From Streptomyces vinaceus (lineage in GTDB: Bacteria; Actinomycetota; Actinomycetes; Streptomycetales; Streptomycetaceae), in the NCBI RefSeq assembly GCF_008704935.1, contig NZ_CP023692.1, positions 6,301,501-6,365,500 on the forward strand: a stretch of 64,000 nucleotides of DNA, written 5' to 3'. Below the pieces are notes generated by a model, which did no database searches, was not told where the DNA came from, and saw nothing but the letters and a program-made list of their open reading frames with translations. Both the position numbers and the translations under genes were made by a program. Shown here one piece after another: positions 1 through 9,399 of this stretch. Position 1 is the stretch's first letter. Every line of letters begins with the position of its first letter.

Positions 1-177
1 AAGGCGATCATCGACCTCGTCGGTTCGGGCCGGATCGATCCCTGCCTGAGCAGCACTCTCCCGTTCCGGGACATCGCCCACGCACACCAACTCGTCTACG
101 AGAACCGCCACCCGGCCGGAAACATGGCCGTCTTCGTCAACGCGCCCGCCGCCGGCCTGACCGGCCTGCCGGCCTGA
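1..177 (+). CDS. Crotonyl-CoA reductase-like zinc-binding dehydrogenase, C-terminal part
   Basis: The reading frame is open from the first base and ends at TGA 175-177, giving the last 58 residues of a medium-chain dehydrogenase. The segment GRIDPCLSSTLPF followed by HQLVYENRHPAGNMAVFV resembles the C-terminus of crotonyl-CoA carboxylase/reductase (CCR) enzymes, which make alkylmalonyl-CoA extender units for polyketides. A quinone oxidoreductase of the same superfamily is the alternative, because the catalytic and NADPH-binding parts lie outside the window. It is followed 42 bases later by an MbtH gene in the same direction, which suggests a shared biosynthetic operon. The MDR fold is fairly sure; the CCR assignment is tentative. 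Confidence 0.6.
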   Translation, partial: KAIIDLVGSGRIDPCLSSTLPFRDIAHAHQLVYENRHPAGNMAVFVNAPAAGLTGLPA

Positions 178-219
178 CACGCGCGCATCCGCCATCCGCT
201 CCCAAGAAGGAGAAATGTC

Positions 220-429
220 ATGAGTAACCCGTTCGAGAACCCCGAGGGCACCTACCTGGTCCTGGTCAATGACGAAGGCCAGCACTCCCTGTGGCCGGAC
301 TTCGCCGAGATCCCCGACGGATGGGACGTGGCCAAGACCGCCGACACGCGCCAGGCCTGCCTCGACCACATTGAGCAGAACTGGACCGACATGCGGCCCA
401 AGAGTCTCATCGCCGCGATGGGAGGCTGA
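220..429 (+). CDS. MbtH-like protein, NRPS adenylation-domain partner
   Basis: A 69-residue protein of typical MbtH length. It has the family signature: [24 protein letters not shown] near the N-terminus (split here as [14 protein letters not shown] then [10 protein letters not shown]), the IPDGW motif, and a C-terminal [10 protein letters not shown]. MbtH proteins bind and activate or stabilise adenylation domains of nonribosomal peptide synthetases and are almost always encoded in NRPS clusters. A strong ribosome binding site (AGAAGGAGAA) precedes ATG 220. Only 5 bases separate its stop from the next gene, so the two are probably cotranscribed. Its presence is the best evidence that an NRPS lies to the left of the window. 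Confidence 0.95.
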
Positions 430-434
430 CAGGG

Positions 435-1709
435 ATGTCGGCCGACATCCTGACGAAGTTCCTCCTGTGCGCCGCCACGATGATCGCCGTGTGCAGGCTG
501 CTCACCGCTGTCATGGCCCGGCTGAACCAGCCGCCCGTGATCGCGGAGATGCTCACGGGCATCGCTCTCGGCCCGTCCTTGTTCGGCCTGCTGCTGTCGG
601 ACGTGCAGAAGTGGATGTTCCCGGACCAGTCGCGACCCGTTCTGTACGCTCTGGGCCAGCTGGGCATCGCCGTCTACATGTTCCTCGTGGGGCTGGAGTT
701 CAGCAGCTCGCTGACCCGGGGCAGTGGACTGCTCCGACGCTGCCTCTCCGTCTCCCTGGCGGGCATCTCCGCGCCCTTCCTCCTCGGAGTCGGCGTCACC
801 GCCTGGCTCTTCAGTAGCCGGCCGGATTTGGTCCCCGACGTCGGCAGCACTTCAGGTGCCCTCTACATCGGCATCGTCGTCTCCATCACGGCGCTGCCCA
901 TGCTGGCCCGCATCATCGAGGAGCGCGGACTGCTCGGCTCCCGGACGGGTACGATCGCACTCGGCGCAGGCGCCCTCGACGATGTCATCGCCTGGCTGGG
1001 CATCGGCCTGATGCTCACCTTCACGGCCACTGGCGAGGTCAGCCCCGTCGTCACCGCCCTCGGCTTCGCGGCTTTCGTGGCGGTCCTGTTCGGTGCGGTC
1101 CGCCCCGGCGTTCGGTGGTACATGGCCCGGACGGACGACGAGCAGGGCACCGGCTTCCTCGCACTCCTCTGCGCCCTGCTGTTCGCGGCGTGCGCGACAA
1201 CGGAGTTCCTCGGACTCCATGTGGTGATCGGTGCCTTCGCCCTGGGGCTGGCGTTCCCCAAGAGCGAGGCGCTGTCCCGGTGGTCGGCGACCGTCCGCCC
1301 CTTCGCCGTGGGCGTGCTTCTGCCCTTCTACTTCGTCTACACCGGCCTGCGGACCGACATCCAACTGCTCGGCTCCGCAGCCATGGTGACCGGAGTGCTC
1401 CTCTTCCTGGCCGCGTCCGTGCTGGGGAAGCTCGGCGCGTGCACGGCCGCCCAGCTGTGGCACGACCGGGACTGGGTGCAGGCCGCCCAGGTCGGGGTGC
1501 TGATGAACACGCGCGGTCTGATCCAGCTCGTCGCCCTGAACATCGGCCTGGAAGCGGGCCTCATAACCAGAACCGTGTTCGCACAGTTGGTCGTCGTGGC
1601 CGTCATCACCACGGTCATGACGAGTCCGGGCCTGAGCCTGCTCGAGAAGTGGCAGCGGAAGCGGCGAGTCAACGCGTCGCCACCCGCGGAGCTCGCCCGC
1701 GTTTCCTGA
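435..1709 (+). CDS. CPA2-family cation/proton antiporter
   Basis: A 424-residue integral membrane protein with about 12 hydrophobic segments that span nearly the whole chain, as in the Na+/H+ exchanger domain of the CPA2 family (KefB/NapA type). The segment GALDDVIAWL near residue 180 matches the acidic pair found in the unwound ion-binding helix of this family. No C-terminal TrkA-N domain is present, so it is the short form. It starts 5 bases after the mbtH stop and is followed closely by the oxygenase gene. Antiporters of this kind are recurrent in antibiotic clusters, where they may support export or self-resistance, but its substrate cannot be read from sequence. Confidence 0.88.
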   Translation: MSADILTKFLLCAATMIAVCRLLTAVMARLNQPPVIAEMLTGIALGPSLFGLLLSDVQKWMFPDQSRPVLYALGQLGIAVYMFLVGLEFSSSLTRGSGLLRRCLSVSLAGISAPFLLGVGVTAWLFSSRPDLVPDVGSTSGALYIGIVVSITALPMLARIIEERGLLGSRTGTIALGAGALDDVIAWLGIGLMLTFTATGEVSPVVTALGFAAFVAVLFGAVRPGVRWYMARTDDEQGTGFLALLCALLFAACATTEFLGLHVVIGAFALGLAFPKSEALSRWSATVRPFAVGVLLPFYFVYTGLRTDIQLLGSAAMVTGVLLFLAASVLGKLGACTAAQLWHDRDWVQAAQVGVLMNTRGLIQLVALNIGLEAGLITRTVFAQLVVVAVITTVMTSPGLSLLEKWQRKRRVNASPPAELARVS

Positions 1710-1747
1710 CCGACTTTCAAGATAGATTCAATGTGAAAGGCATGAGG

Positions 1748-2734
1748 ATGACGACCGAAATGTCCCCCCGCGACGCCCTGGAGAAGAACGGATTCGTGGG
1801 ACCGTTCCCGCGATTCGCCTCGGAGGACACCATCGGGGAACTTCGCGAGTTCTTCCGCGACGTGCTCGACAACCAGCCCGTCCACCCGCTGTACAACCGG
1901 TACTCGGTTCGTGACTGGCACCTGATCAACGAGAAGGTGCGTGAACTCCTGACCGCCCCCGAGCTCATCAAGTCGCTGGAGCAGGCGACCGGCGCGGACT
2001 CGCTGGTCCTCTGGCGCAGCAAGCTCTTCGAGAAGTTCCCCGGCGACGGCGCCATCGACTGGCACCAGGAATACGGGTACTTCGACGGCGAGGAAGTGGG
2101 CGGCCACCGGCCGGCGCTCTTCCCGATGAACCCGTCGAGCCAGTGGAGCTGGACGCTCTGGCTCCCGCTGACGGACGTCTCCGAGGACGACGGCGTGATG
2201 GAGTTCGTCAAGGGGTCGCAGAGGTCGGCGTACCCCAAGCGGATGGTCACGCTCACCGAGTCCGGGGCCTATGTTGATCCGCGGAACCGGATCAAGACCA
2301 AGGAAGAGCTGCTGACCCGGGCGAAGAACAACAGCCTGATCCTCGACATCGACACCCGCCGGGTGTTCGACGGTGTGGACCCCGCCCAGCACTCGCTCGA
2401 CGACCTCTTCGACCTCCTCAGCGAGCGCTGCGCCGGCCTGCTGGCCGTAGTCACGGAGCCCTTCGAACTGGCACCCGGGGCCACCGAGACCATGCCGATG
2501 AACGCGGGTGAGTACATCATCTTCACCGAACGGTGCATGCACCGCTCCCGCGCCTCCAAGCCGGACGCCCGGCTCCGCCTGGCCGTGAACGCGCGCTACA
2601 CGCTCGGCGACACCTGGGTCTACCCGCAGCGCACCACCGGCGACACATTCGACGGCTCGAACCTCGATATCAAGCAGCACAAGTGCATACCGGTGCTGGG
2701 CGACGGCTTCAACCCTGCCAACGCGTACCTCTGA
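1748..2734 (+). CDS. PhyH-type Fe(II)/2-oxoglutarate oxygenase
   Basis: A 328-residue member of the phytanoyl-CoA dioxygenase-like superfamily, closest in layout to the carrier-bound amino-acid hydroxylases and chlorinating enzymes of NRPS pathways. The iron site appears as H106-Q-E108 (WHQEYGYF) with distal H265 in ERCMHRSR; R275 or R277 probably anchors 2-oxoglutarate. A carboxylate is kept at the second position, so hydroxylation is more likely than halogenation, but it is Glu instead of the usual Asp. ATG 1748 is chosen because GAAAGG ends 7 bases upstream; ATG 1742 is an in-frame alternative. The open frame extends much further upstream but only as antisense-type shadow of the antiporter gene. 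It probably tailors the cluster product. Confidence 0.88.
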   Translation: MTTEMSPRDALEKNGFVGPFPRFASEDTIGELREFFRDVLDNQPVHPLYNRYSVRDWHLINEKVRELLTAPELIKSLEQATGADSLVLWRSKLFEKFPGDGAIDWHQEYGYFDGEEVGGHRPALFPMNPSSQWSWTLWLPLTDVSEDDGVMEFVKGSQRSAYPKRMVTLTESGAYVDPRNRIKTKEELLTRAKNNSLILDIDTRRVFDGVDPAQHSLDDLFDLLSERCAGLLAVVTEPFELAPGATETMPMNAGEYIIFTERCMHRSRASKPDARLRLAVNARYTLGDTWVYPQRTTGDTFDGSNLDIKQHKCIPVLGDGFNPANAYL

Positions 2735-2753
2735 CGGAACTCCGTCCCTGCCA

Positions 2754-2793
2754 CGGCCCGTCCCGCCCGGTACAACCGGGACGGGGCGGGCCG
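2754..2793 (+). terminator. Hairpin after the oxygenase gene
   Basis: CGGCCCG (2754-2760) pairs with CGGGCCG (2787-2793). The inner parts TCCCGCCCGG and CCGGGACGGGG also pair with one bulged A. It lies 20 bases after the oxygenase stop, with no T-run, as is usual in Streptomyces. Confidence 0.65.
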
Positions 2794-2830
2794 CAGCCGT
2801 ACCCCGGTGCCGGGAGTCGGGAACACCACG

Positions 2831-2860
2831 AAGGCGTGTCCGAGGTATCGGACACGCCTT
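2831..2860. terminator. Bidirectional terminator between convergent genes
   Basis: A perfect 13-base inverted repeat AAGGCGTGTCCGA / TCGGACACGCCTT with a 4-base loop GGTA. The flanking A and T bases make it work in both directions. It lies between the oxygenase gene on the plus strand and the acyl-CoA dehydrogenase gene on the minus strand. Confidence 0.85.
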
Positions 2861-2875
2861 GTTCAGGAGGGGTGG

Positions 2876-4054
2876 TCAGTACGACTTCGGTAGGCCGAGG
2901 GTGTGGTGCGCCACGAAGTTGAGGATCATCTCGCGGCTGACCGGCGCGATCCGGGTCACCCTGGAGAGGGGCAGCAGCGCGGCGAGGCCGTACTCGGTGG
3001 TGAGCCCGTTGCCGCCCAGCGTCTGGACCGCCTGGTCGACGGCTCGTACCGCAGCTTCGGCTGCGGCGTACTTGGCGATGTTGGCGGCTTCGGCGGCCGC
3101 CTGGTCGTGCTGCTGGTCGTACAGATGGGCGGCCTTGCGCATCATCAGACCCGCGAGTTCCAGTTCGATGTGGATCTGGGCGAGCGGATGGGCGATGGCC
3201 TGATGGGCGCCGATCGGAACCGACCAGACCTGGCGGGTACGGGAGTACTCCACCGCCGTGTTCAGGGCGCGCCGGCCCATGCCGACCGCGAACGCGGCCA
3301 TCATGACCCTCTCGGGGTTCAGGCCGGCGAACAACTGCGGCAGACCCGCGACCTCATTTCCCACCAGGGCTTCGGCGGGCAGCCGAACGTCATCCAGGAA
3401 GAGCTGGAACTGTCGTTCGAGAGCGGAGAGTTCTATCTCCACCTCCCGGTATTCGAATCCCGGTGTGTCGTGCTCCACGATGAACAGGCAGGGCTTCAGC
3501 CTGCCGTCGGTGCCGCCGCTCGCGCGGCCGACGACGAGGGTGGCATCGGCCGTGTCCACGCCGGAGACGAACACCTTGCGGCCGGTCAGGACCCAGCCTG
3601 TGCCGTCCCGGCGCGCGGTCGTCGTGATCCGGTGGCTGTTGGACCCCGCGTCGGGTTCGGTGATCCCGAATGCCATCCGGACCGTTCCGTCGGCCAGACC
3701 GGGCAGCCACCGCCGCTTTTGCTCAGCGGTACCGAACCGGCTGATGATCGTGCCGCAGATGGCCGGTGACACGGCGAGCATCAGCAGGGGGCAGCCCGCC
3801 GCGCTCAGTTCCTCCAGCACGATGGACAGTTCGGTGATACCACCGCCACCGCCGCCGAACTCCTCGGGGAGATTGACGCCGAGGTAGCCGAGCTGCCCGG
3901 CCTCGGCCCACAGCTCCTCGGCCCACAGCCCGTCGGCGGACCGGTCGTGGCGGCCGGCGAGGCCCGCGATGGCTGCGCGCAGTGCCCGTTGTTCGGCGGT
4001 TTCCAGGAACACGCTGCCCACCGGGCCGGTCTGGGTCATCGGGTCGGTGCTCAT
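2876..4054 (-). CDS. Acyl-CoA dehydrogenase (helix-G glutamate type)
   Basis: A 392-residue flavoprotein of standard ACAD length: N-terminal helical domain to about residue 120, middle beta domain with AFGITEPDAGSNS (128-140), and C-terminal helices with QTLGGNGLTTEYGL. The usual catalytic glutamate of the YEGTSEIQ loop is absent; that place reads IAPVSREMI. A glutamate does occur at E248 in GLNPERVMM, the position used as base by isovaleryl-CoA dehydrogenase, so the enzyme is probably active and may prefer a branched or bulky acyl thioester. Its stop is 43 bases from the next gene's end, and the three minus-strand genes form one operon. It probably oxidises an acyl intermediate of the cluster. 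Confidence 0.88.
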   Translation of the reverse strand: MSTDPMTQTGPVGSVFLETAEQRALRAAIAGLAGRHDRSADGLWAEELWAEAGQLGYLGVNLPEEFGGGGGGITELSIVLEELSAAGCPLLMLAVSPAICGTIISRFGTAEQKRRWLPGLADGTVRMAFGITEPDAGSNSHRITTTARRDGTGWVLTGRKVFVSGVDTADATLVVGRASGGTDGRLKPCLFIVEHDTPGFEYREVEIELSALERQFQLFLDDVRLPAEALVGNEVAGLPQLFAGLNPERVMMAAFAVGMGRRALNTAVEYSRTRQVWSVPIGAHQAIAHPLAQIHIELELAGLMMRKAAHLYDQQHDQAAAEAANIAKYAAAEAAVRAVDQAVQTLGGNGLTTEYGLAALLPLSRVTRIAPVSREMILNFVAHHTLGLPKSY

Positions 4055-4097
4055 CTCGTCAGGATCCCTTCGGGGGCCCGGGCGGTAGCCCGCTTCG

Positions 4098-5243
4098 TCA
4101 CAGGTTCAGCTCGGCGAGGACCTCGGCGGTGTGATCACCGTGTCCGGGAGCGGCGCCGCGCAGGGAATGGAGCCCGGATCCGAACAGGACAGGGAAGCGC
4201 ACCTGCTGCCTGGGTCGTTCGGTGGCCGAACCGGGCAGGGTGCCCACCAGCCCGCGGGCGGCGACGTGTTCGTCTGCGAAGACTTCGGCGGAGGTCTCGT
4301 AGACAGGCGCCCACGGCAGGTCCAGTTCGGACAGTGCCGTGGACCACCAGGCGAGATCACGCTGTGCGAAGACCTCTTCGAGCAGCGCCCGCACCTCCCG
4401 CTTGGCGCGCGTCCGGTCCGCGCGGCAGTCGTACCTGCCGTCGGCGAGAACCGGGAACTCCCGGGCGAGGGACAGCCGGAAAGTGAGCCAGAACTTGTCC
4501 TCAAAGGTCGCGAAGGCTATCCGGCGCCCGTCGGCCAGTAGGAACACGTCGTTGTCCCCTGTGACGAGCGGACTGTCGGTCGGGCTCCTGCTTTCCTTCA
4601 ACGGCGGGGCGAGCGCACCCGACCAGGCAGCGGCCGCTTCGTGTAGCGACACGTCCAGGTGCTGACCCTCGCCCGAGAGCCGGGCTGATGAGACCGCCAC
4701 CGAGGTGGCGAGCGCGGCGTACATGGCCCCCGCCATGTCCGCCACCCGGACGCCGACCCGGTCGACGATCGCGTCCACGCGGTGCGGCACCGCGAAGAAG
4801 CCCGCCAGGGCCAGGAAGTTCAGGTCGTGGCCGGGCCGCCCGGCGTAGGGTCCGGTCTGGCCGTAGCCGGTGATCGAACAGAGCACGATGCGGCGATTGG
4901 CGGCGCGCAGCTGCTGGTAGCCGAGTTCCATGCTCTCCAGCACGCCGGGGCGGTGGCTCTCCACGACCGCGTCGCTGCGCTCCACGAGACGCAGCAAGGT
5001 TTCCCGACCGGCTGCCTCGCGTAGGTCCAGCACGACCGACCGCTTGTTGCGGTTCAGCGCAGCGAAGGCATCGGGGTCCACGGCCCTGCCGTAGTCGCCC
5101 CCATTCGGGCTCTCGATCTTGATGACGTCAGCGCCGAGGTCCGCCAACATGAGGGTGGCAAATCCGCCCGGCAGCAGTCGGGAAAGGTCAAGGACGCGCA
5201 GCCCGCGCAGACCCGGCCAACCAGCCGTGGGTTCGACCGGCAT
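4098..5243 (-). CDS. Family III CoA transferase (CaiB/BaiF type)
   Basis: A 381-residue protein with the class III CoA-transferase layout. Signs are GLRVLDLSRLLPGGFATLMLADLGADVIKIE (seen as LDLSRLLPGG and LADLGADVIKIE) at the N-terminus, LNRNKRSVVLDL, and the catalytic aspartate in YGQTGPYAGRPGHD. Family members move CoA between acids or act as alpha-methylacyl-CoA racemases. ATG 5243 is chosen because AGGAGG stands 6 bases upstream; the longer open frame is not supported by homology. It sits between an acyl-CoA dehydrogenase and a sulfotransferase on the same strand. Activation of a carboxylic acid or epimerisation of a methyl branch during precursor supply is a reasonable inference. Confidence 0.88.
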   Translation of the reverse strand: MPVEPTAGWPGLRGLRVLDLSRLLPGGFATLMLADLGADVIKIESPNGGDYGRAVDPDAFAALNRNKRSVVLDLREAAGRETLLRLVERSDAVVESHRPGVLESMELGYQQLRAANRRIVLCSITGYGQTGPYAGRPGHDLNFLALAGFFAVPHRVDAIVDRVGVRVADMAGAMYAALATSVAVSSARLSGEGQHLDVSLHEAAAAWSGALAPPLKESRSPTDSPLVTGDNDVFLLADGRRIAFATFEDKFWLTFRLSLAREFPVLADGRYDCRADRTRAKREVRALLEEVFAQRDLAWWSTALSELDLPWAPVYETSAEVFADEHVAARGLVGTLPGSATERPRQQVRFPVLFGSGLHSLRGAAPGHGDHTAEVLAELNL

Positions 5244-5365
5244 GGGAACCTCCTCGCAAACGCCGCCCTCCCTGCGATTGCGGCCTCCGTGACAGCACCG
5301 TACGGGCGGGACTGTGTAGCAGACTTGATGGTTCCTGCACGGCCGTCTGCCGGTGCTGCCCCGCC

Positions 5366-6169
5366 CTATGCGTAGCCCAAGGCCTTGCATTGGCCGGCCA
5401 GGTCTGCGGGGACCTCATCGATGGCCGGCAGGCGGCGGTGGGGTTGGATGACTCCGGAGGAGATCCTCTCGCGCCAGTCTCCGAGGAACATCCGGAACGA
5501 TCCATGGTCGTGACTTCCGTAATTCAGCATCTCGGCCTCCCACGGAACCCCGAGGTAATCGCAGATGGTCTTCGTGACGACGTCCGGGGAGGTCGTCAGG
5601 TCCTCGTACCGGACGGTGATGCCGTCCAGGTGGGCGCGGGCCTCCGCGACCGCTTCGAGCATCGGGGATATCTGCGCGACGGCGCTGCTCCGCACCTTTG
5701 CCTCCACTTCCTCGGGGGTTTGGGAAAGTGATATGTCGGCCAACTGGTCGCGGAAGATCTCGGAGAGCGATTCCAGGACGTGCACGGGATGGCGGAGCAG
5801 GAATATGTACCTGGCGTGAGGCCAGCACTCGGCCAGCCTCTTCCACATGGCGACGTTCCCCGGCGTCTTCTCCACCAGGACGCTCTTTCCGCTGGCCTTC
5901 AGCTGGTGATCGAGAAGGCGATCCCAGAGCATATGCTCCAGTTCGGTCGCGGTGAGCCCCATTTCATCCGTCGCCGCAGCCGCGGGCTTGGTGTCGATCT
6001 CGACCCGCAGGCCGCCCAGGTGCATCTCGTGGTCGGCGTGCAGCTGGGAATGCGAATTGAGTACGCACCGGAGCAGTGTCGATCCCGACCGCACGGTCGA
6101 AATGACGAAGACCGGAGATTCCACGAGTCTGGAGGAAGGGGCCTTGCGTGCGTCCGCGGGCGTGTTCAC
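5366..6169 (-). CDS. PAPS-dependent sulfotransferase
   Basis: A 267-residue cytosolic protein of the sulfotransferase family. The 5'-phosphosulfate loop is STVRSGSTLL (residues 24-33), a P-loop-like motif. EKTPGN near residue 100 and FLLRHPVHVLESL are typical of bacterial sulfotransferases of the Sulfotransfer_3 or Sulfotransfer_1 type, and ITVRYEDLTTSP matches the 3'-phosphate region. It is the first gene of the minus-strand operon with the CoA transferase (122-base gap) and dehydrogenase. Sulfation of the cluster product or of an intermediate is likely. Stf0-type trehalose transfer seems less likely from the neighbours. Confidence 0.9.
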   Translation of the reverse strand: MNTPADARKAPSSRLVESPVFVISTVRSGSTLLRCVLNSHSQLHADHEMHLGGLRVEIDTKPAAAATDEMGLTATELEHMLWDRLLDHQLKASGKSVLVEKTPGNVAMWKRLAECWPHARYIFLLRHPVHVLESLSEIFRDQLADISLSQTPEEVEAKVRSSAVAQISPMLEAVAEARAHLDGITVRYEDLTTSPDVVTKTICDYLGVPWEAEMLNYGSHDHGSFRMFLGDWRERISSGVIQPHRRLPAIDEVPADLAGQCKALGYA

Positions 6170-6399
6170 AAGAAACTCCTTGGCAATCGATGGCGATCAA
6201 TGAGAGTGAGCAGGACTCGATCCGGACACCGTGATGGAAGGGGACTCTCGGTTGCCCGAAGGACGCTCCAAGACGCTACAAGGGAGGGGCAGGCCATGGC
6301 TGGACCTGCTCTGTACCCGAAGCTGCCTCTTTCGGGAGCGCGTGCCGCATGCGAGAAATACCTGTACTCCTCTGCCGTGCACCGCATCAAGGAGCTCAA

Positions 6400-7464
6400 G
6401 TGCCCTCGACCCTTTCACCGCGCCACACGACCAACGCCCCATCTCGCCGATGGCGTGACCGACTCCTGACTCGAGTGGACGAGCGGATCGAGCAGTTCCT
6501 CGCCACGGAGCGGCAACGGTGGGCAGCATTCGACCCGGACTCGGTCGAAGTACTCGACTGCGTGGTCGGCATGTTCGGCAGCGGGGGGAAACGGCTGCGC
6601 CCCGCGTTCTGCATCGCCGGCTACCTGGCGGCCGGTGGTGACCCGGACGACCCGGCGATCGTCGACGTGGCGGCGGCGCTAGAACTGCTGCACAGCTTTG
6701 CCCTGCTGCACGACGACGTAATGGACGCCTCGGAGCGACGTAGGAACAGGCCCACGGCCCACGTGCTCCACGAGGAGCTGCATGGGCAGCGCGGCTGGCG
6801 AGGCGAGGGCCGCCGGTACGGCGAAGCGGTCGCAGTCCTCGGCGGCGATCTCGCCCTGGTGTACGCGGAGCGCCTGCTGGCGGACTGTCCGCCCGGCGTG
6901 CGCCGGATCTGGGGAGAGCTGTGTACCGAACTCGTGGTCGGGCAGTTCCTCGACCTCCGCAGTGCGGCCCAGTTCGAGGCCGATCCGGAGCGGGCCCGCT
7001 GCATCGCCCTGTTGAAGTCCGGCCACTATACGGTCTCCCGGCCCTTGACACTCGGAGCCGCGCTGGCAGGTGAGGAGAGGCTCCTGGCGCCGTTCGAGGA
7101 GTACGGCATGGCGGTGGGCGAGGCGTTCCAGCTCAGGGACGACCTGCTGGACTTCTTCGGTGACGCGGTGCTGACTGGCAAGCCCGGCCAGCTGGACCTC
7201 CAACAGCACAAAATGACGCTGCTGATGTCACTAGCCCTGCGAGATCAGCCAGTGGTCCAGGCGCTATTCGCCGGTGACGGCACGACCCCAGATCCGGACG
7301 TCCTGCGCCATCTGCTCAACGCCACCGGAGTACGGGATCGAGTGGAGGAGGTGATCGAGGAACGAGTGATCGCGGCCGGCCGTGCCATCGATGGCACTCT
7401 CACCCCTGAATGGGTGGCCGAATTCCTCGCCATGGCTAACGAAGCCGCGTACCGCAACGGCTAG
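6400..7464 (+). CDS. Polyprenyl (geranylgeranyl-type) diphosphate synthase
   Basis: A 354-residue trans-prenyltransferase. It has GGKRLRPAF near the N-terminus, the first aspartate-rich motif in LLHDDVMDASE and the second in LRDDLLDFFGD. A phenylalanine lies five residues before the first motif (FALLHDD), which in type I GGPP synthases stops chain growth at C20; product length is therefore inferred, not shown. GTG 6400 is chosen because AAGGAG lies 5 bases upstream. No terpene cyclase or prenyltransferase is visible in the window. The TAG stop sits in CTAG (7461-7464), which is also the stop of the opposing transposase remnant, so the cluster ends exactly at an insertion scar. Confidence 0.9.
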   Translation: MPSTLSPRHTTNAPSRRWRDRLLTRVDERIEQFLATERQRWAAFDPDSVEVLDCVVGMFGSGGKRLRPAFCIAGYLAAGGDPDDPAIVDVAAALELLHSFALLHDDVMDASERRRNRPTAHVLHEELHGQRGWRGEGRRYGEAVAVLGGDLALVYAERLLADCPPGVRRIWGELCTELVVGQFLDLRSAAQFEADPERARCIALLKSGHYTVSRPLTLGAALAGEERLLAPFEEYGMAVGEAFQLRDDLLDFFGDAVLTGKPGQLDLQQHKMTLLMSLALRDQPVVQALFAGDGTTPDPDVLRHLLNATGVRDRVEEVIEERVIAAGRAIDGTLTPEWVAEFLAMANEAAYRNG

Positions 7465-8352: not shown

Positions 8353-8400
8353 GGGCCATGAGGTCCGAATTGAGTGGTTCGACCGTGCCGCTGTCGGTCG

Positions 8401-8622
8401 GATCCGGTCCGCCTCCGGGCGGCCCTCGCACGGGACGGATTCGAGCTGGCCGCCGCCGAAGGCGATCGCTGGACCGTGGAGGGCATACGGGCCGAGCGGC
8501 TCGGCGGCATGGCCGCCCGCGAGGGCATCCCCGTGCTGGAGCTCTCCGACGAACGCGCCTCGCTGGAGCAGGCGTACCTCGACCTGACCGCCGACCACGC
8601 CCAGTTCGCCGCCACCCACTGA
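8401..8622 (+). pseudogene. ABC transporter ATP-binding protein, C-terminal remnant
   Basis: About 73 codons ending at TGA 8620-8622 match the end of actinobacterial drug-type ABC ATPases. Signs are RLRAALARDGF, then a short beta region, GIPVLELSDERASLEQAYLDLT and an acidic tail. The Walker A, signature and Walker B parts are absent, so no functional ATPase is made. It lies 27 bases before an intact permease gene, its original partner. Confidence 0.75.
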
Positions 8623-8649: not shown

Positions 8650-9399
8650 ATGAGCGCCGCTCTGCCCACCGTCCCCGTCGTGCACTCGGAATGGATCAAG
8701 ATACGGTCCCTGCGCGGCACCTTCGGGGCGTTGATCGCCATTCTCGTGGCCACCGCCGGGATACAGGCACTGGCGGCCGCCGCCATAGGCCGACAGGAGG
8801 CGGGCAGCCTGGGGGAGGACCCACTGCTCGGAGCCTTCTACGGCATCAACTTCGGCCAGATAGCGGCCTTCACCTTCGGGGCGAGCGCGCTGGCCGCCGA
8901 GTTCCACAACGGAGCGCTGCGGACGACGCTGACCGCGGTGCCGAACCGGACCCGCTTCTACCTGTCGAAGGTCGCCGTGGTGGGCGGGCTCGCCTTCCTG
9001 GTGGGCCAGGTCGCCGGACTGCTCACCTTCGTCCTGGGCCAGGCGTTCATGGGGCGGCACGCATTGTCGCTGGGGGACCCGGGCACCTTGCGGGCCGTTT
9101 TCGGCAGCGGCGTGTACCTGACGCTCATGGCCCTGTTCGCGGCCGGACTGACGGCGGTGCTGCGCAGTGCGGCGATCGTGCTGAGCGTGCTCATACCCTT
9201 CGTCGTCATGGTGCCGTTCATCATCGGCCAGGCAGCGGGCGGTGTCGCGGAGTTCCTGCCGGACCAGGCGGGACAGCTCGTGCTGCACGGGGCGTCCACC
9301 GGTCGGCTCGGTCCCTGGAGCGGCCTCGCGGTGCTGGCGCTGTGGGCGGCGGCCGCGCTGGCCGGCGGCTGGCTGGCGGTGCGTCGGCGCGACGCGTGA
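8650..9399 (+). CDS. ABC-2 type transporter permease
   Basis: A 249-residue membrane protein with six hydrophobic segments, the standard half-transporter of the ABC-2 family. It has the N-terminal HSEWIKIRSLRGTF typical of Streptomyces permeases next to drug-efflux ATPases, and AAEFHNGALRTTLTAVPNRTRF, which corresponds to the EF-like coupling region (listed here as AEFHNGALRTTLTA). The start has AAGGAGG 7 bases upstream. Its own ATPase gene is destroyed upstream, so it can work only with an ATPase encoded elsewhere, or not at all. No frameshift is seen inside the gene. Confidence 0.85.
   Translation: MSAALPTVPVVHSEWIKIRSLRGTFGALIAILVATAGIQALAAAAIGRQEAGSLGEDPLLGAFYGINFGQIAAFTFGASALAAEFHNGALRTTLTAVPNRTRFYLSKVAVVGGLAFLVGQVAGLLTFVLGQAFMGRHALSLGDPGTLRAVFGSGVYLTLMALFAAGLTAVLRSAAIVLSVLIPFVVMVPFIIGQAAGGVAEFLPDQAGQLVLHGASTGRLGPWSGLAVLALWAAAALAGGWLAVRRRDA

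What the first reader, a model, noticed from the sequence alone, without database searches (positions are those of the whole stretch)
1..7464. Right end of a hybrid metabolite cluster with NRPS, acyl-CoA, sulfation and isoprenoid genes
MbtH, a CCR-like reductase, a carrier-type oxygenase, an acyl-CoA dehydrogenase, a CaiB-type transferase, a sulfotransferase and a GGPP-type synthase stand side by side. I do not know a cluster with this set. It could make a sulfated, perhaps prenylated, lipopeptide or meroterpenoid. The core enzymes lie to the left.
Basis: partly seen in the sequence, partly recalled or inferred. Interest (0 to 1): 0.62.

Follow-up and report, generated by a model that had tools for sequence, protein, structure and literature searches.

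The report
Terpene-linked lipopeptide gene cluster
A Streptomyces gene cluster, whose right end lies in this window, carries an assembly line for a nine-part peptide together with genes that look able to make a terpene, cut it open and turn it into the peptide's fatty tail; related clusters occur in a few other Streptomyces, and I found no described product for any of them.

Summary
The genes are real and form the right end of a ~56 kb NRPS cluster (window about -48.7 kb to +7.5 kb). Two giant NRPS genes to the left encode nine modules (starter-type first C domain, two E domains, one TE); no ketosynthase motif was seen. The window holds the end of a CCR gene, MbtH, a CPA2 antiporter, a PhyH-type oxygenase, an acyl-CoA dehydrogenase, a CaiB-type transferase, a sulfotransferase and a polyprenyl diphosphate synthase. 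Orthologous clusters occur in S. atratus, S. huasconensis and five of 391 other sampled genomes of the genus. Their shared core includes a terpene synthase and g046, a protein whose predicted fold and Arg/Thr/His motif match trans-anethole oxygenase and latex-clearing protein (alkene-cleaving heme enzymes). The same six of 392 genomes carry orthologues of terpene synthase, g046 and the NRPS starter domain. Best reading: a terpene is cleaved, oxidised to an acid, CoA-activated, trimmed and used as N-terminal acyl group of a nonapeptide. The terpene-NRPS linkage is strong; the acyl-starter role is inferred. Within the family, sulfotransferase and tryptophan halogenase were found only here: strain-specific decoration. 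No described product found; MIBiG was not searchable.

The parts
1..177 (+). 3' end of crotonyl-CoA carboxylase/reductase (g052); gene starts at window -1088 and overlaps the end of NRPS g051 by 4 bases
   Evidence: TIGR01751 560.7 bits; gene; 75-78% identical in 5 of 7 relative genomes
220..429 (+). MbtH-like protein
   Evidence: Pfam MbtH 96.5 bits; 70-77% identical in 5 of 7 relative genomes
435..1709 (+). CPA2-type cation/proton antiporter, possible export or self-protection role
   Evidence: Pfam Na_H_Exchanger; 65-66% in S. atratus and S. huasconensis, 73% in Streptomyces sp. ISL-100
1760..2734 (+). PhyH-type Fe/2-oxoglutarate oxygenase with HQE where SyrB2 has HQA; predicted hydroxylase, probably linked to the residue of module 5
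   Evidence: co-occurs with the module-5 code in 3 of 3 clusters of the family that have it
2876..4054 (-). Acyl-CoA dehydrogenase
   Evidence: Pfam; 72-77% identical in 4 of 7 relative genomes
4098..5243 (-). CaiB-type (class III) CoA-transferase; start uncertain (ORF open to 5390)
   Evidence: Pfam CoA_transf_3 295.8 bits; 73-75% in 6 of 7 relative genomes and an 82% partial match in S. huasconensis
5366..6169 (-). PAPS-type sulfotransferase, found only in this member of the cluster family
   Evidence: Pfam Sulfotransfer_3 98.2 bits; weak match to CurM sulfotransferase; no match in 12 related stretches
6349..7464 (+). Short-chain polyprenyl diphosphate synthase (FPP or GGPP); start 6349 or 6475
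   Evidence: Pfam polyprenyl_synt 154.4 bits; both Asp-rich motifs; 65-67% in 4 of 7 relative genomes
8377..8613 (+). Remnant: C-terminal end of an ABC transporter ATPase
   Evidence: 42% to residues 258-338 of the S. atratus ORF at this place; the G269 counterpart of that ORF hits Pfam ABC_tran
8650..9399 (+). ABC-2 type membrane protein, possible edge of the cluster
   Evidence: 53% in S. atratus, 37-39% in four others; the G269 counterpart hits Pfam ABC2_membrane_4; this protein itself was not scanned

Best explanation
The window holds the right end of a terpene-NRPS hybrid cluster for a cyclic nonapeptide whose N-terminal acyl group is made from a terpene. Proposed path: a polyprenyl diphosphate synthase (g059, or the housekeeping one) feeds a class I terpene synthase (g047); the heme oxygenase g046 cleaves a C=C bond of the terpene to an aldehyde; an aldehyde dehydrogenase (clustered in relatives; not found in this strain's cluster, so it would have to come from elsewhere in the genome, which I did not search) makes the acid; the acyl-CoA ligase g042 activates it; CaiB g057, acyl-CoA dehydrogenase g056, enoyl-CoA hydratase g049, F420-type oxidoreductase g041 and perhaps the CCR trim or reduce the acyl-CoA; the starter C domain of NRPS g039 joins it to residue 1. 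Nine modules (g039: 4, ending in E; g051: 5, with E in module 8 and a final TE) then build the peptide, with a diaminopropionate-like residue at position 2 whose side amine probably closes the ring. TauD (g050) and PhyH (g055) hydroxylate residues; halogenase g037, glycosyltransferase g040 and sulfotransferase g058 decorate this strain's version. Shown by computation: gene content, NRPS layout, conservation, co-occurrence, g046 fold and motif. Inferred: every reaction, every substrate and the acyl-starter role.
For: NRPS layout C-A-T x4 + E, and C-A-T x5 with E in module 8 and TE. First C domain: best PDB matches are 7c1k and CDA synthetase I 5du9 (that both are starter C domains is recalled); the module-2 C domain matches 5u89 and 7kvw instead. 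Terpene synthase with DDxxD and NDxxSxxKE motifs, invariant in 7 sequences. g046: AlphaFold model (pLDDT 82.4) matches trans-anethole oxygenase 8s1j (Foldseek E 1.4e-5; Z 25.6, 272 residues) and Lcp 5o1l (Z 18.3); next rows are globins at Z 8.7. Profile match to 8s1j E 3.4e-9. R70, T74 and H102 in 12 of 12 sequences, like Arg164, Thr168, His198 named as active-site residues of LcpK30 (PMC5522427). Of 15 plasmid records listed with a homologue, 12 annotate it 'oxygenase MpaB family protein'. The same 6 of 392 genomes, own included, hold orthologues of terpene synthase, g046 and starter C domain. Aldehyde dehydrogenase beside the terpene synthase in 3 of 3 relatives tested by Pfam. A 45%-identical g046 homologue elsewhere (G246) again lies beside a polyprenyl synthase and an aldehyde dehydrogenase. 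Terpene synthase, g046, SbnA-like and SbnB-like genes run in one direction with gaps of 20, 98 and -4 bases.
Against: No enzyme or product was tested. g046 matches no Pfam model (E up to 10) and no NCBIfam model. The polyprenyl synthase is in 4 of 7 relatives and dehydrogenase g056 in 4 of 7. The aldehyde dehydrogenase of the relatives has no match in this strain's 120 kb around the cluster, nor among the called proteins of the S. atratus stretches and S. huasconensis C22, so the path needs outside genes. Five relatives carry a second set (ACP, PALP enzyme, dehydrogenase, AMP ligase, esterase; in S. huasconensis no ligase ORF was readable) that could supply an ordinary acyl starter. SbnA/SbnB-like proteins are below their curated cut-offs (250.5 of 349.95; 185.6 of 326.9 bits). 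The CCR has no PKS to serve. Co-occurrence ignores kinship, and only 4-6 candidates per genome were scored in the three searches, so absences in NRPS-rich genomes are not certain. Three further g046 homologues (40-42%) showed no polyprenyl or terpene synthase neighbour.
Confidence: 0.5

Rival explanations
1. Ordinary cyclic lipopeptide with a fatty acyl tail; the terpene synthase, g046 and polyprenyl synthase make a separate small terpenoid (for example a helper or signal) that is merely co-inherited and co-regulated.
For: Stand-alone terpene synthases are common in Streptomyces (general knowledge); g042 belongs to the general acyl-CoA ligase families and starter C domains usually take fatty acyl groups (recalled); five relatives have an additional acyl-activating set.
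Against: The same 6 of 392 genomes hold all three orthologues; terpene synthase and g046 sit in one run with the SbnA/SbnB-like genes; acyl-CoA enzymes that could process a cleaved terpene acid are conserved too.
Confidence: 0.22
2. The terpenoid acid or aldehyde is attached elsewhere on the peptide: on the side amine of diaminopropionate or on a hydroxyl, not at the N-terminus.
For: Terpene synthase, g046 and the SbnA-like gene are neighbours in 7 of 7 relatives, with the SbnB-like gene next in 6 of 7 (not in the S. atratus stretch).
Against: No acyltransferase or prenyltransferase was recognised among the cluster proteins scanned with Pfam; a starter-type C domain needs an acyl donor.
Confidence: 0.15
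3. g046 and the CoA enzymes make an unusual amino acid or a hydroxylated terpene rather than a cleaved acid; the CCR supplies an alkylmalonyl or 2-alkyl acid for it.
For: CCR is conserved and overlaps NRPS2 by 4 bases without any PKS; several A domains have codes that fit no amino acid I can recall.
Against: The two solved structures that g046 resembles are C=C-cleaving oxygenases (for Lcp from the paper, for trans-anethole oxygenase recalled).
Confidence: 0.13

Closest known systems
Amphomycin/friulimicin/laspartomycin-type cyclic lipopeptides (recalled)
   Same: Acyl starter, exocyclic residue 1, diamino acid at position 2 as likely ring closer, Asp residues and D-residues, TE release
   Different: Nine modules instead of eleven; no Asp-X-Asp-Gly run in the predicted sequence; terpene synthase and alkene-cleaving-type oxygenase in the cluster
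Mycophenolic acid pathway, MpaB step (PMC11934065, passages read)
   Same: Oxidative cleavage of an isoprenoid chain to an aldehyde by an MpaB oxygenase, later CoA ligation and beta-oxidation
   Different: Fungal, membrane-bound, acts on a farnesylated phthalide; no NRPS
Latex-clearing protein LcpK30 (PMC5522427, abstract start and passages read) and trans-anethole oxygenase 8s1j
   Same: Fold and Arg-x3-Thr...His motif of g046
   Different: 11-18% identity; Lcp acts outside the cell on rubber
Krisynomycin (prenylated, chlorinated depsipeptide; PMC9655573 and PMC13171985, passages read)
   Same: Streptomyces NRPS product with chlorotryptophan and isoprenoid parts
   Different: There the isoprenoid is a prenyl group on tryptophan; no prenyltransferase recognised here, and the halogenase is closest to a 6-halogenase while krisynomycin has 7-chlorotryptophans
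Syringomycin (recalled)
   Same: Lipo-nonapeptide with hydroxy-Asp and a PhyH-family modifying enzyme
   Different: Pseudomonas; SyrB2 has HQA, the protein here has HQE

Membership tests
Nonribosomal lipopeptide synthetase | Starter-type first C domain | tested here: met
   Best PDB matches 7c1k (336.4 bits) and 5du9 (270.4 bits), known to me as starter domains; control module-2 C domain matches other chains
Nonribosomal lipopeptide synthetase | Final thioesterase and acyl-activating enzyme | tested here: met
   TE serine motif at the end of g051 (motif only); acyl-CoA ligase g042
NRPS-PKS hybrid | Ketosynthase domain | tested here: not met
   No ketosynthase motif in six frames of 6,245-6,312 kb
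Calcium-dependent lipopeptides | Asp-X-Asp-Gly run | tested here: not met
   Read from A-domain codes: Asp at 3 and Asp/Asn-like at 6 only (code meanings recalled)
DUF2236 / Lcp / MpaB-type heme oxygenases (g046) | Globin-like fold of Lcp and trans-anethole oxygenase | tested here: met
   Z 25.6 and 18.3 against next rows at 8.7
DUF2236 / Lcp / MpaB-type heme oxygenases (g046) | Active-site Arg, Thr and proximal His | tested here: met
   R70, T74, H102 in 12 of 12 sequences; aligned with trans-anethole oxygenase; Lcp residues from PMC5522427
DUF2236 / Lcp / MpaB-type heme oxygenases (g046) | Match to a curated Pfam or NCBIfam family | tested here: not met
   No Pfam family at E up to 10 and no NCBIfam family at E up to 0.001
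DUF2236 / Lcp / MpaB-type heme oxygenases (g046) | Heme binding and alkene cleavage | not testable with these tools
   Needs purified protein
Class I terpene synthase (g047) | DDxxD and NDxxSxxKE metal-binding motifs | tested here: met
   Invariant in 7 sequences; Pfam Terpene_syn_C_2 141.4 bits
Fe/2OG halogenase (SyrB2 type) for PhyH 1760-2734 | Ala or Gly in place of the iron-binding carboxylate | tested here: not met
   HQE in all 6 sequences against HQA in SyrB2; chlorinating-enzyme model below its cut-off, 98 of 226.3 bits
Tryptophan halogenase (g037) | Close match to characterised tryptophan halogenases | tested here: met
   1091.4 bits to 5hy5, tryptophan 6-halogenase; position of chlorination not testable here
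2,3-diaminopropionate synthases SbnA/SbnB | Score above curated cut-off | tested here: not met
   250.5 of 349.95 and 185.6 of 326.9 bits, yet the best NCBIfam matches of both proteins
Crotonyl-CoA carboxylase/reductase (g052) | Score above curated cut-off | tested here: met
   560.7 against 378.55 bits

The most novel reading that the evidence does not exclude
A family of bacterial NRPS clusters that prime peptide synthesis with a terpene-derived acid made by oxidative cleavage of a terpene: 'terpeno-lipopeptides', with this member also chlorinated, glycosylated and sulfated.
Probability: 0.45. Interest if true: 0.82.

Novelty: new variant of a known kind. Interest (0 to 1): 0.6.

Why it matters
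If right, bacteria feed a terpene through a heme oxygenase and acyl-CoA chemistry into the starter C domain of an NRPS. That would join two large natural-product classes by a route I do not know from bacteria, give a clear genomic signature (terpene synthase + MpaB-like oxygenase + CoA ligase beside a starter-C NRPS) for finding more, and give a role to one branch of the MpaB-like oxygenases; homologues of g046 at E 1e-10 or better occur in 230 of 392 sampled genomes of the genus.

Tried and rejected
Krisynomycin as the product: rejected, it has prenylated tryptophan and 7-chlorotryptophans (one search is a bare mention). PhyH protein as a halogenase: rejected on the HQE motif. PKS-NRPS hybrid: no ketosynthase motif. 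Sulfotransferase as a core feature: rejected, no match in 12 related stretches, while 83 of 392 genomes, own included, hold homologues, best 54% apart from its own. Calcium-binding Asp-X-Asp-Gly motif: not seen. A-domain codes in print: no paper in the library holds any of six codes. Papers on terpene-NRPS lipopeptides, on S. atratus lipopeptides or on sulfated or chlorinated diaminopropionate lipopeptides: searches (15 of 17 listed) listed nothing that, by title and opening of the abstract, describes this cluster. Plasmid records: g046 has matches in 21, all under 60% identity. VIA-align rows below rank 3 for g046 are mainly globins and phycobiliproteins at Z 8.7 or less, read as a shared globin arrangement. 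G248:C3 was fetched in search of the rest of that cluster and not used.

The named scan used only the PhyH protein and found 5 loci. Relative clusters in S. atratus and S. huasconensis are split over contigs and G248 ends at a contig edge, so absences there are weak. Gene calls are from my own GC-frame script, starts uncertain. Meanings of A-domain codes are recalled, not looked up; the first two letters of the module-5 code depend on the alignment (a reading by eye gave other letters).
Full report
What is there. The window is bases 6,301,501-6,365,500 of a single 7.67 Mb contig. The NRPS core lies at once to the left: g051 (6,079 aa, + strand) ends 1,085 bases before the window and g039 (4,725 aa, - strand) lies at window -47,057 to -32,880. 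Of 18 Condensation-family hits in the genome, 11 fall in these two genes, as expected from nine C and two E domains.

The full cluster, left to right: tryptophan halogenase g037 (1091.4 bits to the 6-halogenase 5hy5), NRPS g039, glycosyltransferase g040, F420-type LLM oxidoreductase g041, acyl-CoA ligase g042, SARP-like regulator g043, SbnB-like g044, SbnA-like g045, g046 (no family), terpene synthase g047 (all - strand), then type II thioesterase g048, enoyl-CoA hydratase g049, TauD oxygenase g050, NRPS g051, CCR g052, MbtH, antiporter, PhyH (+), acyl-CoA dehydrogenase, CaiB, sulfotransferase (-), polyprenyl synthase (+). G+C is 70.5% in the cluster, 74.3% left of it and 72.6% right of it; the first 8 kb of the window are 66.5-68.3%. 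The response regulator and partner g034/g035 on the left (63-80% and 47-63% in five relatives, none found in two) and the ABC membrane protein at 8650-9399 may belong too. The two NRPS genes were located by the Condensation family and by sequence motifs, not scanned whole with Pfam.

Relatives. The PhyH protein is rare (2 of 392 genus genomes, own included); a scan of named genomes gave five loci. Two of these, S. atratus JCM 3386 and S. huasconensis HST28, carry an orthologous cluster split over contigs; ISL-100, NRRL WC-3742 and cf386 have the PhyH gene in other NRPS surroundings. A genus search with g046 gave five more genomes at 72-75% identity, the next at 45%; all five lie in the same cluster type (G248 reaches a contig end, its starter C domain lies on another contig). 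Matches in the fetched stretches of these 7 relative genomes: terpene synthase 7, g046 7, SbnA-like 7, ligase 7, LLM 7, CaiB 7, SbnB-like 6, TauD 6, hydratase 6, thioesterase 6, CCR 5, MbtH 5, polyprenyl synthase 4, acyl-CoA dehydrogenase 4 (72-77%), PhyH and antiporter 2, g040-type glycosyltransferase 2, halogenase 0, sulfotransferase 0. Outside the family, cf386 has the halogenase at 76%. Misses in S. atratus, S. huasconensis and G248 can be gaps.

Linkage. In one fixed sample of 392 genomes the set with a g046 orthologue (72% or more), the set with a g047 orthologue (64% or more) and the set with the g039 starter C domain (71% or more) are the same six, own genome included.

g046. No Pfam or NCBIfam model fits, but 12 of 15 listed plasmid records with a homologue annotate it as an MpaB-family oxygenase. 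Its AlphaFold model (mean pLDDT 82.4) matches trans-anethole oxygenase (Z 25.6) and latex-clearing protein (Z 18.3), with globins next at 8.7; a profile search also finds the former (E 3.4e-9). Arg, Thr and proximal His named as active-site residues of LcpK30 (PMC5522427, passages read) have counterparts R70, T74 and H102, invariant in 12 of 12 sequences; the match to Lcp numbering is by motif spacing, the match to trans-anethole oxygenase by alignment. Lcp cleaves polyisoprene to products with aldehyde and ketone ends (same paper, start of abstract); that trans-anethole oxygenase cleaves a C=C bond is recalled. MpaB cleaves a farnesyl chain to an aldehyde, and CoA ligation and beta-oxidation follow (PMC11934065, passages read). 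Beside the terpene synthase of three relatives tested, Pfam finds an aldehyde dehydrogenase; a fourth, G298, has an ORF of the same size and place, not tested. In G246, outside this cluster family, a 45% homologue again stands beside a polyprenyl synthase and an aldehyde dehydrogenase; in G299 a homologue of 44-45% lies three genes from a polyprenyl synthase; three other homologues (40-42%; G240, G189, G088) have no neighbour that matches the polyprenyl or terpene synthase of this cluster.

The peptide. A-domain codes (meanings recalled): position 1 DAALFGAVCK, 2 DVWEVTADDK, 3 DLTKMGHIGK (Asp), 4 DAYPTGSLAK with E, 5 DAWDMGFVDK, 6 DMTKLAVVSK (Asp/Asn-like), 7 DVWEVTADDK, 8 DVWHFSLVDK (Ser) with E, 9 DAMWRGGVLK (Val-like at best). 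Position 2 reads the same in G269, G298 and G362, one letter differs in S. atratus, it is unresolved in G364, and the S. huasconensis stretch has frame breaks and reads differently. Since the SbnA-like gene is in all seven relatives, position 2 is best read as diaminopropionate, the likely ring closer; the Sbn-like proteins are below their cut-offs, so this is inference. Position 5 is DAWDMGFVDK in the three clusters with PhyH and Gly-like in the four without it that could be read, so PhyH probably makes or modifies residue 5. Against a fixed partnership, PhyH also sits in ISL-100, WC-3742 and cf386, where the A domains read showed no such code (fragments only). Which module takes chlorotryptophan is open (1 or 4).

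How it most likely works. Terpene synthase, cleavage by g046, oxidation to the acid, CoA activation and trimming, transfer to residue 1 by the starter C domain, nine-residue assembly, TE release as a ring, tailoring. Gene content, layout, linkage and the g046 fold are shown; each chemical step is inferred. The main rival is an ordinary fatty acyl tail with a separate terpenoid from co-inherited genes.

Novelty. I made ten full-text searches of an open-access library, of which those on terpene-NRPS peptides, on S. atratus and on the predicted peptide features gave no description of this cluster by title and abstract opening; subscription papers and MIBiG were not available, so a described product cannot be excluded.

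Noticed in passing
window 8377-8613 and 8650-9399: Only the C-terminal end of an ABC ATPase was found beside an ABC-2 membrane gene; S. atratus and G269 have a longer ORF (344 and 321 aa) there.
   Followed up: partly
window 435-2734; L059, L083, L084, L076: PhyH oxygenase and CPA2 antiporter genes stand side by side in 5 of 6 loci, also in otherwise different NRPS clusters (ISL-100, cf386); in WC-3742 they are about 27 kb apart.
   Followed up: partly
window -1088 to 177: A CCR above its curated cut-off overlaps NRPS2 by 4 bases and is conserved, although no PKS was seen that could use alkylmalonyl-CoA.
   Followed up: no
L107 10910-16656 and relatives: Five relatives carry an extra set (ACP, PALP enzyme, acyl-CoA dehydrogenase, AMP ligase, esterase; no readable ligase ORF in S. 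huasconensis) between thioesterase and hydratase, missing here and in G364.
   Followed up: partly
L140/L141, G364 7227478-7241693: The first NRPS gene of G364 is read as two ORFs split inside module 2, either a sequencing error or a broken gene.
   Followed up: no
G000:C1:6402498-6407018: Another NRPS gene (2,444 aa frame) lies about 37 kb right of the window end.
   Followed up: no
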